Shown here: positions 2,927 through 63,803 of the stretch, piece after piece
How the letters are laid out: each line of letters begins with the position of its first letter
Position numbering within the stretch: the stretch's first letter is position 1
Origin: Ruminococcus sp.
Lineage (GTDB): Bacteria; Bacillota; Clostridia; Oscillospirales; Ruminococcaceae
NCBI GenBank assembly: GCA_017542475.1
Contig: JAFXXD010000034.1
Coordinates: forward strand, 1-63,803
Reading direction: 5' to 3'
DNA length: 63,803 nt
Notes under the pieces: generated by a model
The model's database searches: none
The model's input: the letters and a program-made list of their open reading frames with translations, nothing else
What the model was told of the DNA's origin: nothing
Translations under genes and position numbers: made by a program

Positions 2927-3664
2927 ATGGAAGAAATGTGCCAAGACTTTATGCGCAAAATGCAGGCAGCAGCCGCTAAAGGTCCGTCATTGGAGGACGT
3001 AAGAGCAGATATGACACCGCACGGCAGGCTCGTGAGCTGCTCATATTATGCTTCGTCAAGCGGGATGCAGTGCAACAGCAACACGCTGCTGGATATCTCC
3101 GTCATAGTTGCGGACGGCGTGCAGAGGATAAGCTATACAAATAAACCTGCCTTCCAGTCCCAAACAGTGACCGTTTATAAGCCGAAGCAGGACGTTCTCG
3201 CAGCCGTGCAGGAGCTGACTGAGCGTGAGAATCTTGCGGCGTGGTCAGCGCTGGAGTACCACGATCCTTTCCCTTGCACCGACTGCTCAAGCAGCACTTC
3301 TGTCTCCCTGACCTTTGATGACAGCTCCGTAGGGGGGAAGAGCAGCGTGCGCAAAACTATTAATGTTGATGCGGCTTGTCAGCATGGCGGCGGTGATGTT
3401 ATACAGCAGTTCCGTGATATACTGGAAACGGCTGTGCAGGATTCGGAGGTGCTGTCAAAGACGGAATATGATACACCGAATGCAGGACTCGGGTTTATGG
3501 GCATAATGGGAATGCTGGGTACGCCTCCGACACCCGCTCTGGAAACAGATCTCCCCGACGGTGCGTGGAGGTGCGGGAAATGCGGCTGCGCTTCCAACAC
3601 AGGCAGATTCTGCACCGAATGCGGCGCAAAAAAAGGAACGCCGCCGATTCATTACGAAGCGTGA
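2927..3664 (+). CDS. Uncharacterised protein with C-terminal zinc ribbon
   Basis: The start at 2927 is chosen because a GAGGTG ribosome site (2915-2920) precedes it; an in-frame TTG at 2873 lies in the terminator region of the previous gene. The protein has 245 residues and no signal peptide or membrane segment. The body (SYYASSSGMQCNSN, then a CTDCSSS segment) is not recognised. The last ~25 residues form a double-CxxC zinc ribbon (WRCGKCGCASNTGRFCTECG) of the kind found at the ends of many small Firmicutes cytoplasmic or membrane-linked proteins. It is a monocistronic gene between a terminator and a consensus promoter. Function unknown. Confidence 0.75.
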   Translation: MEEMCQDFMRKMQAAAAKGPSLEDVRADMTPHGRLVSCSYYASSSGMQCNSNTLLDISVIVADGVQRISYTNKPAFQSQTVTVYKPKQDVLAAVQELTERENLAAWSALEYHDPFPCTDCSSSTSVSLTFDDSSVGGKSSVRKTINVDAACQHGGGDVIQQFRDILETAVQDSEVLSKTEYDTPNAGLGFMGIMGMLGTPPTPALETDLPDGAWRCGKCGCASNTGRFCTECGAKKGTPPIHYEA

Positions 3665-3694
3665 AACGGTGAGAGCGTTCGATAAAGAAATCAC

Positions 3695-3723
3695 TTGTAT
3701 TTTTCCGAGATACAATGTATAAT
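3695..3723 (+). promoter_or_regulatory. Sigma-A-type promoter for the HAD hydrolase gene
   Basis: TTGTAT (3695-3700), a 17-base spacer and TATAAT (3718-3723) lie about 30 bases before the start codon. Confidence 0.7.
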
Positions 3724-3755
3724 ATATACAGCAACCCGTATAAGGAGAATACACT

Positions 3756-4928
3756 ATGACTGCTGAGAGAAAAACCAAGGAAAGCAAGCCCGTTCTTGCG
3801 ATATGCTACGACTTCGACAAGACCCTTTCGCCCGACGATATGCAGGCGCAGGGCTATATACAGTCGGTCTATGACGGCGATATACCGTCGTTCTGGAAGG
3901 AGACCGACGAGCTCGCGGAGGCTAACGAGATGGACTCGAATCTCGCCTATATGTTCAAGATGGTGAACGAGGCGAGGGGACGCATCGTGCTCACGAAAAA
4001 GAGCCTGCAGGAATACGGCTCGAAGGTCAAGCTCTTCGACGGCGTCGAGGAGTGGTTCGGACGCATACGCGAGTACGGCTCGGAGCACGGCGTCATAGTC
4101 GAGCACTACATAATCTCGTCGGGCTTGAAGGAAATGATAGAGGGCACATCTGTCGCGAAGAGCGGGGCTTTCGAGAAGATATACGCGAGCTCGTTCATGT
4201 TCGACGACAAGGGCGTACCGATATGGCCCGCGCAGGTGGTCAACTACACGAACAAGACGCAGTTCCTGTTCAGGATAGAGAAGGGCGTGCTCGACGTAAA
4301 CGACTCGGGCGTGAACGACTTCTTCGCTCCCGAGGAGCTGCGCGTGCCGTTCAGGAATATGGTCTACATCGGCGACAGCGATACCGATATCCCGTGTATG
4401 AAGCTCGTCAACACCAACGGCGGACACTCCATCGGCGTGTACAACAACGACACGCTCGACAAGTCGAAGGTGTACAAGATGCTCCACGACAACCGTATCA
4501 GGTACTTTGCTCCCGCGGACTACACCGACGGCTCGGAGCTCGACAGGCTCGTGAAGGCGATAATCGACCGTACTGTCGCCAATGAGGTGCTCGAGGACTT
4601 CCACTTCGGCTGCAAGGACGAGAGGGAGCACAACGACGCCCGCAAGGCAAAGGACGAAAACAAGCGCAGGCGGCTCGACTGTATACTCGCGCTTGACGGC
4701 AGCACCAACTTCGGTACGACGCATACGCTGATGAAGGAAATGCTCAGCATCAATGACTGGACGGAGGAGGAGATAGGTATGCTCCTCGATATCGCGCTGA
4801 ACAATCACCCTGTCCGCTATCTGCTGAACGACAGCGACGTGAACAGCTTCTTCCGCGGGATAATCGCAATGCTTCCCGTTAAGACCGATAAGGCAGAGAA
4901 GGTGGAGAGCTTCTTTGAGAATAAGTGA
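3756..4928 (+). CDS. HAD-superfamily hydrolase (phosphatase-like)
   Basis: This 390-residue protein carries haloacid-dehalogenase motif I as CYDFDKTLS (nucleophile Asp and second Asp at about residues 19 and 21). A motif II-like Ser lies in HYIISSGLKEM, and motif IV is YIGDSDTDIPCMK. The 70-residue insertion between motif I and the core is the usual cap. A ~130-residue C-terminal extension beyond the HAD fold (from about residue 265) is charged and of unknown role. The start is supported by AAGGAG six bases ahead. By family rules it is a Mg-dependent phosphoryl hydrolase; the substrate cannot be told. Monocistronic, with its own promoter and a terminator shared with the convergent neighbour. 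Confidence 0.85.
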   Translation: MTAERKTKESKPVLAICYDFDKTLSPDDMQAQGYIQSVYDGDIPSFWKETDELAEANEMDSNLAYMFKMVNEARGRIVLTKKSLQEYGSKVKLFDGVEEWFGRIREYGSEHGVIVEHYIISSGLKEMIEGTSVAKSGAFEKIYASSFMFDDKGVPIWPAQVVNYTNKTQFLFRIEKGVLDVNDSGVNDFFAPEELRVPFRNMVYIGDSDTDIPCMKLVNTNGGHSIGVYNNDTLDKSKVYKMLHDNRIRYFAPADYTDGSELDRLVKAIIDRTVANEVLEDFHFGCKDEREHNDARKAKDENKRRRLDCILALDGSTNFGTTHTLMKEMLSINDWTEEEIGMLLDIALNNHPVRYLLNDSDVNSFFRGIIAMLPVKTDKAEKVESFFENK

Positions 4929-20751: not shown

Positions 20752-20822
20752 AAATGTTCCTCCTGTTATGCCTGATTTGTACTGTCGATCCGAAGCCATA
20801 ATGCGCCGGAAAATAGCATTAT

Positions 20823-21072
20823 AATTAATGTGTACTCAATAACCGCCATTAGGCGGTTATTGCCCCGAACTTTGTTCGGGGTGCGCAAATTCTTTGATAA
20901 TATATGGAATTTGCGCATCACATTAATTGATGTCAAGCTCATTTTGCCCTAAATGGCAAAACAAAGTGCAAGAAAAATTATTTTTTCTTGCACTTTGACA
21001 ACTCAAAAATGCCTTTTAAAAGCTATATAAAGGCATTTTTGAGTCGTTGAGCAGACATTAATTAATGTCTGC
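20823..21072 (+). repeat. Structured hairpin element, copy A
   Basis: A closing stem AATTAATGTG (20823-20832) / CACATTAATT (20919-20928) encloses three hairpins: 20837-20862 (CAATAACCGCC arm), 20863-20881 (CCCCGAAC arm) and 20882-20917 (TGCGCAAATTC arm). Four more follow: 20942-20961, 20962-20997 (16-bp stem CAAAGTGCAAGAAAAA), 20998-21049 (ACTCAAAAATGCCTT arm) and the perfect palindrome 21051-21072. A further small hairpin lies at 21085-21099. No good -35 box is seen for this copy. It fills most of the gap between the lectin gene and cotJC; no protein-coding frame is evident in it. Confidence 0.8.
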
Positions 21073-21174: not shown

Positions 21175-21717
21175 TTATCCTGACCGTAATGCTTCGCCGA
21201 AGCGCTGGTAATGCACGATCTCGCGCTGTCTGAGGAATCGGATGGGGTCGCGGACATCGGGGTCGTCGGCGAGGCGGAGGATATTGTCGTAGGTGGTGCG
21301 GGCTTTCTGCTCCGCCGCCATATTCTCGTGCAGGTCGGTGATGATGTCGCCCTTGGACTGGAAGTAGGTCGCGGTGAAGGGCGTGCCCGAAGCGGCGACA
21401 GGGTAGATACCCGTCGTGTGGTCAACGAAGTAGGTGTCGAAGCCGCTCGCCTTTATCTCGTCGATAGAGAGCCCCTTTGTAAGCTGATACAGAATGGCTG
21501 AGATCATCTCCACATGGGCGAGCTCCTCGGTGCCTATATCAGTAAGCAGACCCTTCACCTCGCCGTAGGGCATGGCGAAGCGCTGGTTGAGATAGCGCAG
21601 GGAAGCGGCTAATTCGCCGTCTGGACCTCCGAGCTGGCTGATAATGACCTTAGCCATTTTCGGGTCGGGATTCTTGATGTTTACGGGGTACTGTAATTTC
21701 TTTTCATACTGCCACAT
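21175..21717 (-). CDS. cotJC: Spore coat protein CotJC (manganese-catalase fold)
   Basis: This 180-residue protein is of the usual CotJC length. It starts MWQYEKKLQYP and carries the di-manganese four-helix signature: ELAASLRYLNQRF, GTEELAHVEMI (EExxH), an AAEQKARTTYDN segment and REIVHYQRFGE. CotJC family proteins resemble Mn catalases and sit in the inner spore coat; enzyme activity in the coat is inferred. It is the last gene of a cotJA-cotJB-cotJC operon, 3 bases after cotJB. Together with bofA at 30622 it argues that the organism forms endospores. Confidence 0.92.
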   Translation of the reverse strand: MWQYEKKLQYPVNIKNPDPKMAKVIISQLGGPDGELAASLRYLNQRFAMPYGEVKGLLTDIGTEELAHVEMISAILYQLTKGLSIDEIKASGFDTYFVDHTTGIYPVAASGTPFTATYFQSKGDIITDLHENMAAEQKARTTYDNILRLADDPDVRDPIRFLRQREIVHYQRFGEALRSG

Positions 21718-24060: not shown

Positions 24061-24089
24061 TTGAAATTCTCACACTCGTGTGATATAAT
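24061..24089 (+). promoter_or_regulatory. Consensus promoter ahead of hairpin element copy B and PPi-PFK
   Basis: TTGAAA (24061-24066), a 17-base spacer and TATAAT (24084-24089). The predicted start near 24096 is a few bases before the closing-stem arm at 24103. Confidence 0.8.
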
Positions 24090-24096
24090 AGACCTA

Positions 24097-24342
24097 TAAG
24101 ATAATGTGCCTCCAATAACCGCCGTTAGGCGGTTATTGTCCCGAACTTCGTTCGGGAAGCGCAAATTCTTTATGAAATAGGGAATTTGCGCTCCACATTT
24201 CTTCATGTCAAGCTCATTTTGCCCTATAGGGCAAAACAAAGTGCAAGAAAAACTTCAAATTATTGTTTTTCTTGCACTTTGGCAACTAAAAAATGGCTTA
24301 AAAGCTATATAAAGCCATTTTTTAGTTGTTGAGCAGACATTA
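24097..24342 (+). ncRNA. Structured hairpin element, copy B (candidate structured RNA / leader)
   Basis: Same architecture as copy A. The closing stem AATGTG (24103-24108) / CACATT (24194-24199) holds three hairpins: CAATAACCGCC arm, TCCCGAAC arm and GCGCAAATTC arm. Then come TTTTGCCC/GGGCAAAA, a 17-bp stem with a CAAAGTGCAAGAAAAAC arm, and ACTAAAAAATGGCTT/AAGCCATTTTTTAGT. Several differences from copy A change both sides of a pair. The final palindrome of copy A is cut to its left arm here. The phosphofructokinase ribosome site begins about 20 bases later, so the element probably lies in that mRNA's 5' leader, or is a separate RNA. Known riboswitch classes were not recognised. Confidence 0.6.
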
Positions 24343-24372: not shown

Positions 24373-25590
24373 ATGATGAACATTGCAGTTGCGCAGTCGG
24401 GAGGTCCCACCTGCGCGATAAACGCCTCGCTCGTGGGCGTATTCAGCGAGGCTCTCAAGGAGCCCAAAATCGACGCAATATTCGGCTCGGTGAACGGTAT
24501 CGAGGGAATGATAGAGAACCACCTCATCGACCTCAAAGCCTTTATCAACACCAACGACGATATGGAGCTCCTGCGTCAGACGCCGTCAACGGTGCTCGGT
24601 TCGTGCAGATATAAGCTCCCCGACTACAAGGAGGACGAGGAGACCTACAAGAAGATAGTCAAGACGCTGAAACAGCGCAGGATAGGGGCTTTCTTCTACA
24701 TAGGCGGCAACGACTCGATGGACACGGTGGACAAGCTCTCCGCTTACTTCGCCGAGAAGAAGATAGATATCAAGGTCATCGGCATACCCAAGACCATCGA
24801 CAACGACCTCTGCGTCACCGACCACACCCCCGGATTCGGTTCGGCGGCTAAGTACGTTGCCGCGACCATGCACGAGATAGTCCGCGACAGCTCGGTCTAC
24901 AGCATACCCTCGGTCACTATTGTCGAGGTAATGGGACGTCACGCGGGCTGGCTGACGGCTTCGAGCGCGGTGCTGCACGCTCTCGGCGAGACTGCTCCTC
25001 ACCTTGTATACGTCCCCGAGGCGGAGTTCTCGCTGGATAAGTTTATGAACGACGTCCGCAATCAGATGGCGAAGCACAAGGCTGTCATCGTAGCTGTTTC
25101 CGAGGGAATGGAAGTGCCCGACGGCGTGCAGTCGGGAGTTGTCGATAACTTCGGGCATAAGTACCTCTCGGGCATAGGCAAGTACCTTGAGGAGCAGGTA
25201 CGCGAGCAGATAGGCTGCAAGGTGCGTTCTATCGAGCTCAACGTAATGCAGCGCTGTTCGTCGCACCTCTGCTCGCGCACGGATATAGACGAGTCCGAGG
25301 CTGTCGGAGCTGCGGGCGTAAGATGTGCGCTTGGCGGCGGTACGGGCAAGATGATGGTATTCCGCCGAGTGAAGGATATGCCGTACACGGTAGTCATCGA
25401 GGCTGCCGACGCGTCAAAAATCGCGAACAAGGAGAAGTTCCTCCCGCGCGAGTACATCAACTCCGAGGGCAACAACATCACCGACGCGGCAATGCGCTAT
25501 TTCCTGCCGCTGATACAGGGCGAGCTCAATATCCGTATGAATATGGGTATTCCGATGCACTTCACATTGCAGGAATCCGTTTTGAAGTAA
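24373..25590 (+). CDS. 6-phosphofructokinase, pyrophosphate-dependent type
   Basis: The 405-residue protein belongs to the PFK family: VAQSGGPTCAINAS (phosphoryl-donor loop), IGGNDSMDT, GIPKTIDNDL (catalytic TIDND), VEVMGRHAGWL and VSEGMEVPDG. PPi-users carry Asp after the GGD position and Lys before TIDND. Here the text is GGND-S and P-K-TIDND, so both PPi determinants are present, while the usual Asp of GGD is Asn, which deserves a test. It phosphorylates fructose 6-phosphate in glycolysis, in the reversible PPi-linked form common in anaerobic Firmicutes. Start at 24373 (GGAGGG six bases ahead); 24376 is an adjacent alternative. Monocistronic, with structured element copy B in its leader. 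Confidence 0.88.
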   Translation: MMNIAVAQSGGPTCAINASLVGVFSEALKEPKIDAIFGSVNGIEGMIENHLIDLKAFINTNDDMELLRQTPSTVLGSCRYKLPDYKEDEETYKKIVKTLKQRRIGAFFYIGGNDSMDTVDKLSAYFAEKKIDIKVIGIPKTIDNDLCVTDHTPGFGSAAKYVAATMHEIVRDSSVYSIPSVTIVEVMGRHAGWLTASSAVLHALGETAPHLVYVPEAEFSLDKFMNDVRNQMAKHKAVIVAVSEGMEVPDGVQSGVVDNFGHKYLSGIGKYLEEQVREQIGCKVRSIELNVMQRCSSHLCSRTDIDESEAVGAAGVRCALGGGTGKMMVFRRVKDMPYTVVIEAADASKIANKEKFLPREYINSEGNNITDAAMRYFLPLIQGELNIRMNMGIPMHFTLQESVLK

Positions 25591-63666: not shown

Positions 63667-63803
63667 AATTAATGTGTACTCAATAACCGCCGTTAGGCGG
63701 TTATTGCCCCGAACTTCGTTCGGGGTGCGCAAATTCTTTGATAATATATGGAATTTGCGCATCACATTAATTGATGTCAAGCTCATTTTGCCCTAAAGGG
63801 CAA
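63667..63803 (+). ncRNA. Structured hairpin element, copy C (truncated by window end)
   Basis: Closing stem AATTAATGTG (63667-63676) / CACATTAATT (63763-63772). Inside are hairpins at 63681-63706, 63707-63725 and 63726-63761. The next hairpin (TTTTGCCC arm) is cut by the window end. It differs from copy A by only a few bases, all in loops or making pairs better. Stretch 63526-63635 shows no gene. Confidence 0.65.

What the first reader, a model, noticed from the sequence alone, without database searches (positions are those of the whole stretch)
20823..21072. Undescribed dispersed element that folds into a multi-branch domain plus a chain of long hairpins
Three copies (20823, 24097, 63667) share an order of stems: a long-range closing stem around three hairpins, then three to four further stems of 7-17 bp. 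Between copies A and B stems change on both sides: the CCCCGAAC/GTTCGGGG outer C-G pair becomes T-A, and in the ACTCAAAAATGCCTT stem one C-G becomes A-T and another C-G becomes G-C. Paired change across about 250 bases indicates selection on structure. No protein frame runs through it and it does not match REP or riboswitch families I can name. It could be a structured regulatory RNA, a non-autonomous mobile element, or a protein-binding nucleic-acid platform.
Basis: seen in the sequence. Interest (0 to 1): 0.88.

Follow-up and report, generated by a model that had tools for sequence, protein, structure and literature searches.

The report
Mobile hairpin element inserted at promoters
A short, protein-free, hairpin-packed mobile DNA element has copied itself many times in Ruminococcus bacteria, often landing in one fixed orientation right on the start signal (promoter) of a gene, where it would become the folded front end of that gene's message.

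Summary
The repeat is real: at least 23 copies in this Ruminococcus genome, and matches in 27 of 60 genomes of the genus. It is a MITE-like non-autonomous mobile element rather than a host regulatory RNA. The flanking 4-bp duplications vary together (54 of 77 exact, shuffled mean 28.7), element-free orthologous sites exist, the ends are inverted repeats, and the body is modular with internal deletions.

Unexpected: the left end usually abuts a sigmaA -10 box. TATAAT is exact at 103 of 154 sites. TTGACA is enriched at exactly 17 nt upstream; this was seen in 109 sites and again in 45 further ones. Orientation is locked (TATAAT on the left in 48 of 77, on the right in 2). With a strong promoter, 30 of 34 next genes are co-oriented. 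None of the window's three copies has a -35 at that spacing.

Stems co-vary (28 of 75 pairs). But single-copy changes hit stems and loops alike, and G-U does not exceed A-C, so structure is probably kept for propagation, not for the host. No Rfam family matches. The mobilising enzyme was not found.

The parts
20827..21059 (+). Copy A, long form, AATGTG...GACATT
   Evidence: ends set by the flanking repeats
20827..20924 (+). Copy A, domain 1: stem AATGTG/CACATT around three hairpins; this domain alone is the short mobile form elsewhere
   Evidence: fold; short copies
20929..21059 (+). Copy A, domain 2: second closed multibranch domain with three hairpins
   Evidence: fold; alignment
20823..20826 (+). 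Left flanking repeat AATT of copy A
21060..21063 (+). Right flanking repeat AATT of copy A
20820..20825 (+). TATAAT at the left junction of copy A (no -35 match at 17 nt; neighbouring genes run the other way)
24103..24341 (+). Copy B, long form, in the leader of a phosphofructokinase-like gene (24373-25590, named by eye)
24061..24089 (+). TTGAAA-17-TATAAT with TG before it, upstream of copy B; here the element sits 13 nt past TATAAT, at TATAAG
   Evidence: conserved in element-free relatives
63671..63803 (+). Copy C, left part only, cut by the contig end
63664..63669 (+). TATAAT at the left junction of copy C (no -35 match at 17 nt)

Best explanation
A MITE-like, non-autonomous mobile DNA element of the genus Ruminococcus that inserts in one orientation at TATAAT sites, preferentially those of real sigmaA promoters. 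SHOWN by sequence: ends AATGTG...CACATT (short form) or AATGTNTNCTCAA at both ends (long form); 4- to 5-bp target duplications; element-free orthologous sites; left end facing TATAAT with TTGACA enriched 17 nt upstream; two tandem closed domains whose stems co-vary. INFERRED: an enzyme supplied in trans recognises the ends or the hairpins, cuts about promoter positions -9 to -5 (inside the stretch that RNA polymerase melts, from general knowledge), and joins the element in one orientation. The promoter is left intact, transcription would start within the first bases of the element, and the element becomes a self-folded 5' leader that leaves the ribosome-binding site downstream free. Low cost to the host would help it spread. 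The structure is kept by what propagation needs, not by the host gene.
For: Duplications: 54 of 77 exact against a shuffled mean of 28.7 (maximum 39); for the 25 non-AATT left flanks 16 exact against a mean of 1.7 (maximum 7). Element-free sites: phosphofructokinase-like locus in 6 relatives; eight element-free copies of another repeat that holds one insertion; 29 of 30 orthologs of one occupied gene carry no element within at most 330 nt upstream. Promoter: 109 sites, TATAAT exact in 73, TTGACA at spacer 17 averages 3.15 of 6 against 1.42-1.85 at all other spacers 5-39; 45 further sites, 30 exact, 3.07 at spacer 17. Against intergenic TATAATWW background: -35 in 44 of 73 versus 55 of 177, p = 3e-5. 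Orientation: TATAAT on the left in 48, on the right in 2 of 77; -35 of 5 or more in 26 versus 1. Next gene co-oriented in 30 of 34 with a strong promoter, 16 of 34 with a poor -35. Stems constrained in shared variation (0.373 versus 1.337 alleles per column) but not in single-copy variation (0.513 versus 0.562).
Against: No enzyme was found: two copy-rich genomes (G000, G013) have no match to PF01609, PF00665 or PF00872. 85 of 154 sites lack a -35 of 4 or more at 17 nt, and none of the three window copies has one, so promoter placement is a preference, not a rule. 23 of 77 copies are followed by a gene on the other strand. No transcript data. In short copies only 7 of 15 (8 if L022, whose right end was misread, is counted) have exact duplications. 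Sites are treated as independent although some may be shared by descent (near-duplicates were removed).
Confidence: 0.72

Rival explanations
1. Plain sequence preference plus survivorship: the mover only reads a directional TATAATTA-like motif; copies in promoters persist because the gene still works, and no promoter or RNA polymerase is involved.
For: 85 of 154 sites lack a good -35; 55 of 177 unoccupied intergenic TATAATWW already have one; sites with a poor -35 keep the same TATAAT orientation.
Against: The -35 and the extended -10 TG are enriched beyond intergenic TATAATWW (44 of 73 versus 55 of 177, p = 3e-5; TG 33 of 73 versus 49 of 177, p = 0.011), and the spacing signal was seen again in 45 further sites.
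Confidence: 0.25
2. Mobilisation by a single-strand HUH enzyme (REP-associated tyrosine transposase type) that reads the hairpins.
For: Such proteins co-occur with the element: both 20, element only 7, protein only 6, neither 27 of 60 genomes, p = 2e-5. The G013 protein matches NF047646 (E 5.5e-16, below its cut-off). Hairpin-rich elements fit such enzymes (general knowledge).
Against: Clear 4- to 5-bp duplications, which this mechanism does not make (general knowledge). The end pattern, searched allowing mismatches, was not found near the RAYT-like genes of L262/L272, L273, L274 and L275. Association weakens among genomes under 3 Mb (7, 6, 6, 25; p = 0.03) and relatedness was not corrected for.
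Confidence: 0.07
3. A structured cis-regulatory or small RNA used by the host and spread to many genes.
For: Strong covariation: 28 of 75 pairs, 126 cells, shuffles 8.4 and 26.6; frequent leader position.
Against: Single-copy substitutions fall equally in stems and loops; private G-U 18 versus A-C 17, shared types 11 versus 8. 29 of 30 orthologs of one occupied gene lack it. Internal deletions down to 42 bp persist. Opposite-strand neighbours in 23 of 77. No Rfam match.
Confidence: 0.05
4. Paired changes arise by template switching inside DNA palindromes during replication, not by selection.
For: No strand-specific RNA signature; the stems are equally stable as DNA (z = -15.9).
Against: If arms were corrected routinely, single-copy stem changes should be rarer than loop changes, and they are not. 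Long-range closing stems also show paired change (helices 1 and 5).
Confidence: 0.12

Closest known systems
Prokaryotic MITEs in general (review PMC10969869; abstract, outline and sections 4, 10, 12 seen)
   Same: Under 500 bp, inverted-repeat ends, target duplications, AT-rich intergenic sites, stable stem-loops, size variants; the review also tells of a Correia element just downstream of the mtrCDE promoter.
   Different: Systematic, oriented placement at the -10 box over many sites; two-domain body; no related autonomous element found.
BOX elements of Streptococcus pneumoniae (PMC3049150; abstract, section 5 and passages seen)
   Same: Modular, folded, TIRs and duplications, variable number of modules, may lie in leaders.
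   Different: Found here only in Ruminococcus-related genomes; different ends; the passages read do not describe a fixed promoter position. No BOX sequence was compared.
TnGBS / p-MULT 3 and ISKra4-group transposons (PMC3942029; passages seen)
   Same: Target sigmaA promoters, oriented insertion ascribed to unlike inverted repeats.
   Different: They insert 15-17 bp upstream of the -35; this element sits at the -10 box and on the transcribed side. Their transposase family was not searched for here.
REP sequences with RAYT transposases
   Same: Dispersed short palindromes; a RAYT-like gene in many of the same genomes.
   Different: Inverted-repeat ends and duplications; not next to the RAYT-like genes examined.

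Membership tests
MITE | short (<500 bp), multicopy, no long ORF | tested here: met
   median 244 bp (long) and 97 bp (short); at least 23 copies; only mechanical short ORFs overlap
MITE | terminal inverted repeats | tested here: met
   AATGTNTNCTCAA at both ends of the long form; only about 6 bp (AATGTG/CACATT) in the short form
MITE | target site duplication | tested here: met
   54 of 77 exact, shuffled mean 28.7; 16 of 25 non-AATT, mean 1.7; element-free sites
MITE | related autonomous element or transposase | tested here: inconclusive
   none found with the ends or with four Pfam families in four genomes; many families not searched
TnGBS / p-MULT 3 | insertion 15-17 bp upstream of the -35 box | tested here: not met
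   left end lies at the -10 box, downstream of the -35
TnGBS / p-MULT 3 | Mutator-like transposase of that group | not tested
REP / RAYT | no target duplication | tested here: not met
   duplications present
REP / RAYT | element next to the RAYT gene | tested here: not met
   end pattern not found around the RAYT-like genes of L262/L272, L273, L274, L275
Rfam RNA family | match at gathering score | tested here: not met
   0 matches in the window; sub-threshold only with permissive settings
Host cis-regulatory RNA | structure under selection in each copy, RNA-strand pairing rules | tested here: not met
   single-copy changes equal in stems and loops, G-U 18 versus A-C 17; small numbers
BOX element | homology to boxA/boxB/boxC | not tested
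   no BOX sequence was fetched

The most novel reading that the evidence does not exclude
A transcription-coupled mobile element: inserted into the DNA that RNA polymerase opens at sigmaA promoters (duplication at about -9 to -5, one orientation) by an enzyme outside the common IS families, with its closed hairpin domains rather than long inverted repeats as the recognition signal, so that insertion at a promoter makes it the transcribed leader of a host gene.
Probability: 0.2. Interest if true: 0.86.

Novelty: new variant of a known kind. Interest (0 to 1): 0.6.

Why it matters
The promoter-targeting bacterial transposons that I found in print sit upstream of the -35 box (PMC3942029, passages). 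An element that lands at the -10 box in a fixed orientation would be transcribed by the promoter it hits, which bears on how transposition finds open promoters and how an element can spread at low cost. It also offers a natural series of promoters with and without a folded 5' leader for testing effects on mRNA stability. Practically, it accounts for assembly breaks: 16 of 114 contig ends of this assembly lie in the repeat (counted).

Tried and rejected
Autonomous partner. Searched by the end pattern in the own genome, in the loci held then, in six genomes (list cut off) and in 20 stretches around unpaired ends; the ends seen belonged to normal, truncated or fused copies and none enclosed a gene. 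PF01609: 0 of 4 genomes; PF00665: 1 of 4 (G032); PF01797: 3 of 4 (G013 below cut-off); PF00872: 2 of 4. Viral contigs: one locus, the same place as the window; 0 for a right-end pattern. Plasmids and phages: none.

Failed or replaced steps; its right-end finder matched an internal stretch in most copies, so its flank and duplication tables are void; one search replaced it. One search held artefact rows from contig-edge loci; one search replaced it. Of the 109 sites, 77 had a usable right end (three short ones, L081, L110, L136, were dropped there as unreadable; the rest were partial matches or cut). Among the 15 'short' rows, L117, L131 and L162 are really deletion derivatives whose true end lies a little further on, and L022 was misread; all four count as mismatches. 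Of 62 long copies, 57 were aligned; L073, L092, L106, L121 and L146 were left out. Of 60 stretches fetched as a second set, 14 were duplicates and 1 had no left end, leaving 45. For the five joined-flank queries, element-free matches were seen for four sites (L005, L009, L022, L026); for L020 none was in the listed rows, and the list was cut off. The automatic alignment at L022 is poor; the promoter there was read by eye.

RAYT as mover was set aside because of the duplications (see rivals).

Literature. Searches listed no paper describing this element or -10-box insertion; apart from PMC3942029 (passages), PMC3049150 (abstract, section 5, passages) and PMC10969869 (abstract, sections 4, 10, 12) only listings were seen. 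Gene names of downstream proteins are by eye from their first residues.

Full report
WHAT WAS CHECKED. The three copies named in the finding are in the window with the stems and paired differences described. Searching the window's own assembly (2.66 Mb, 57 contigs) with 20823-21072 gave 44 matches: 28 rows that are copies or parts of copies, one 57-base remnant, and 15 rows in which one arm of a hairpin matches the other. By my count these 28 rows are 9 long copies, 5 short ones, 1 truncated one, and 8 left plus 5 right fragments at contig ends, hence at least 23 copies. 16 of the 114 contig ends lie inside the repeat, including the end of this window. No Rfam family reaches its gathering score in the window; permissive settings give only sub-threshold matches.

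ANATOMY. The long form (median 244 bp) runs from AATGTG to GACATT and folds as two tandem closed multibranch domains: domain 1 closed by AATGTG/CACATT around three hairpins, domain 2 closed by a second stem around three more, with AATT between them in copy A (-111.6 kcal/mol, z -13.3; as DNA z -15.9). Domain 1 alone is also a mobile form (97 bp), with its own duplications at, for example, L142 (AATA) and L151 (AAGT). Internal deletion derivatives keep both outer ends: 42 bp (L249), 46 bp (L239), about 70 bp (L241) and 142 bp (L250). Tandem copies separated by AATT occur (L111, L115).

IT IS MOBILE. For 77 of 109 sites both ends could be read. The four bases on either side agree exactly in 54 (shuffled partners: mean 28.7, maximum 39). 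Because AATT dominates, the stricter test is the 25 sites with another left tetranucleotide: 16 agree (shuffled mean 1.7, maximum 7). A few sites read better with five bases, such as AATAT at L069 and AATTC at L118. Element-free sites: at the phosphofructokinase-like locus of copy B six relatives align across the junction without it (G004, G009, G099, G108, G008, G038). The copy at C5:68038 lies inside another dispersed repeat, element-free in all eight loci that I aligned. One occupied gene (radical-SAM-like by eye, L166/L169) has no element within at most 330 nt upstream in the other 29 of 30 orthologs read; several show a TTGACA-type promoter shortly before the ribosome-binding site, where the occupied locus has promoter plus element.

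IT FAVOURS PROMOTERS. In 109 distinct left flanks the sequence at the junction is TATAAT in 73 (at least 4 of 6 in 100). TTGACA at a spacer of 17 matches 3.15 of 6 bases on average, against 1.42-1.85 at every other spacer from 5 to 39. A second set of 45 sites, not used to find the pattern, gave 30 exact, 39 with at least 4 of 6, and 3.07 at spacer 17 (next 2.18 at 18). Together 103 of 154 are exact, 139 have at least 4 of 6, and 69 have a -35 of at least 4 of 6 at 17 nt; 85 do not. Control: unoccupied intergenic TATAATWW of the same loci have such a -35 in 55 of 177, exact-TATAAT insertion sites in 44 of 73 (p = 3e-5); the TG of the extended -10 is 49 of 177 against 33 of 73 (p = 0.011). The right side shows none of this: exact TATAAT 2 of 77 against 48 of 77 on the left, -35 of 5 or more 1 against 26. 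The next gene, by a simple ORF caller, is co-oriented in 48, opposed in 23 and not called in 6 of 77; with a strong promoter (-10 at 5 or more, -35 at 4 or more) 30 to 4, with a poor -35 (2 or less) 16 to 14 and 4 uncalled; median distance from element to start codon about 37 nt. In this genome alone 13 of 20 sites have exact TATAAT and 8 of 20 such a -35. The window's copies are not good examples: A and C have TATAAT but no -35 at 17 nt, and copy B sits 13 nt past a good promoter, TTGAAA-17-TATAAT at 24061-24089.

WHAT THE STRUCTURE SAYS. In an alignment of 57 of 62 long copies, 28 of 75 predicted pairs changed on both sides (shuffles 8.4 +/- 1.7; 0 of 500 as high), with 126 such cells (26.6 +/- 4.2); sliding the partners gives 5-11 pairs. 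The structure was predicted on the same alignment, which favours it. Complementarity is thus kept over the lineage. But substitutions seen in one copy only are as common in stems (0.513 per column) as in loops (0.562), whereas variants shared by two or more copies are rare in stems (0.373 against 1.337). I read this as constraint on copies that give rise to new copies and near-neutral decay afterwards. If the RNA were what is kept, G-U should be tolerated above A-C; single-copy cells are 18 against 17, shared types 11 against 8; the numbers are small, and counting all cells (93 against 37) is dominated by one pair whose consensus is U-G (44 cells). A start about 7 nt after TATAAT would fall inside AATGTG and take most of one arm of the domain-1 stem out of the RNA (inference), which again points to DNA, where that stem is the inverted-repeat end.

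WHO CARRIES IT. 27 of 60 genomes of the genus have a match (G022 and G040 only at E about 6e-4; a loose first look with few candidates scored per genome, so copy counts are lower bounds). An exact-pattern scan of 84,980 species genomes gave 81 stretches, all titled Ruminococcus except one 'Bacillota bacterium' contig whose length equals that of contig C36 of G046, a genome of this genus. A family-level draw of 297 genomes (126 genera) hit 4: G000 and G013 of this genus, G347 of another genus with two full-length copies, and G320 with a 38-base match only (two candidates scored per genome). None in plasmids or phages.

WHAT MOVES IT. Unknown. G000 and G013, both rich in copies, have no match to PF01609, PF00665 or PF00872. 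G013 has one sub-threshold IS200-like match, resembling REP-associated tyrosine transposases; G000 has two proteins similar to it. They co-occur with the element (20, 7, 6, 27 of 60; p = 2e-5), but less clearly among genomes under 3 Mb (p = 0.03), relatedness is not corrected for, and the duplications speak against that mechanism. Known promoter-targeting DDE transposons insert 15-17 bp upstream of the -35, their orientation being ascribed to unlike inverted repeats (PMC3942029, passages). The present element works like these in being oriented and promoter-bound, but does not meet their defining position, and their transposase group was not searched for.

VERDICT. A Ruminococcus-centred, MITE-like mobile element with an oriented preference for the -10 box of promoters: a new variant of a known kind. 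Shown by sequence: mobility, duplications, promoter enrichment, orientation, covariation. Inferred: mobilisation in trans, insertion at or near the opened -10 region, leader formation, low host cost. Not shown: any transcript, any enzyme, any effect on expression.

Noticed in passing
G000:C5 about 67980-68440 (L005 1465-1505 and from 1749); L206-L214: A second dispersed palindrome-rich repeat (TTATAGTGAACGTCAAAA...), about 135 bp, present at about 91% identity in many genomes of the genus; one copy of the element is inserted in it.
   Followed up: partly
L166, last ~30 residues of the protein at 3067-4080: The C-terminal ~30 residues match many other places in G013 and other genomes, so a further dispersed repeat seems to supply the gene's end.
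   Followed up: no
window 21175-21717 (-) against L168 from about 1200: A viral-collection contig carries the same locus as the window but leaves it inside the coat-protein-like gene (named by eye), as if a prophage were inserted there in that strain.
   Followed up: no
window 21047-21072: The right end of copy A is followed by an inverted piece of a right end (GCAGACATTAATTAATGTCTGC), perhaps the relic of a second element in opposite orientation.
   Followed up: no
L079 1505-1828: A 324-bp copy with other sequence inside a hairpin of domain 2.
   Followed up: partly
L143 and L166; L111 and L123: Similar genes carry a copy in their leader in different genomes; shared descent or repeated insertion was not resolved.
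   Followed up: no
G347:C10:90892-91145 and C6:53883-54136: Two full-length copies (85% and 79% identical) in another genus of the family: possible transfer between genera.
   Followed up: no
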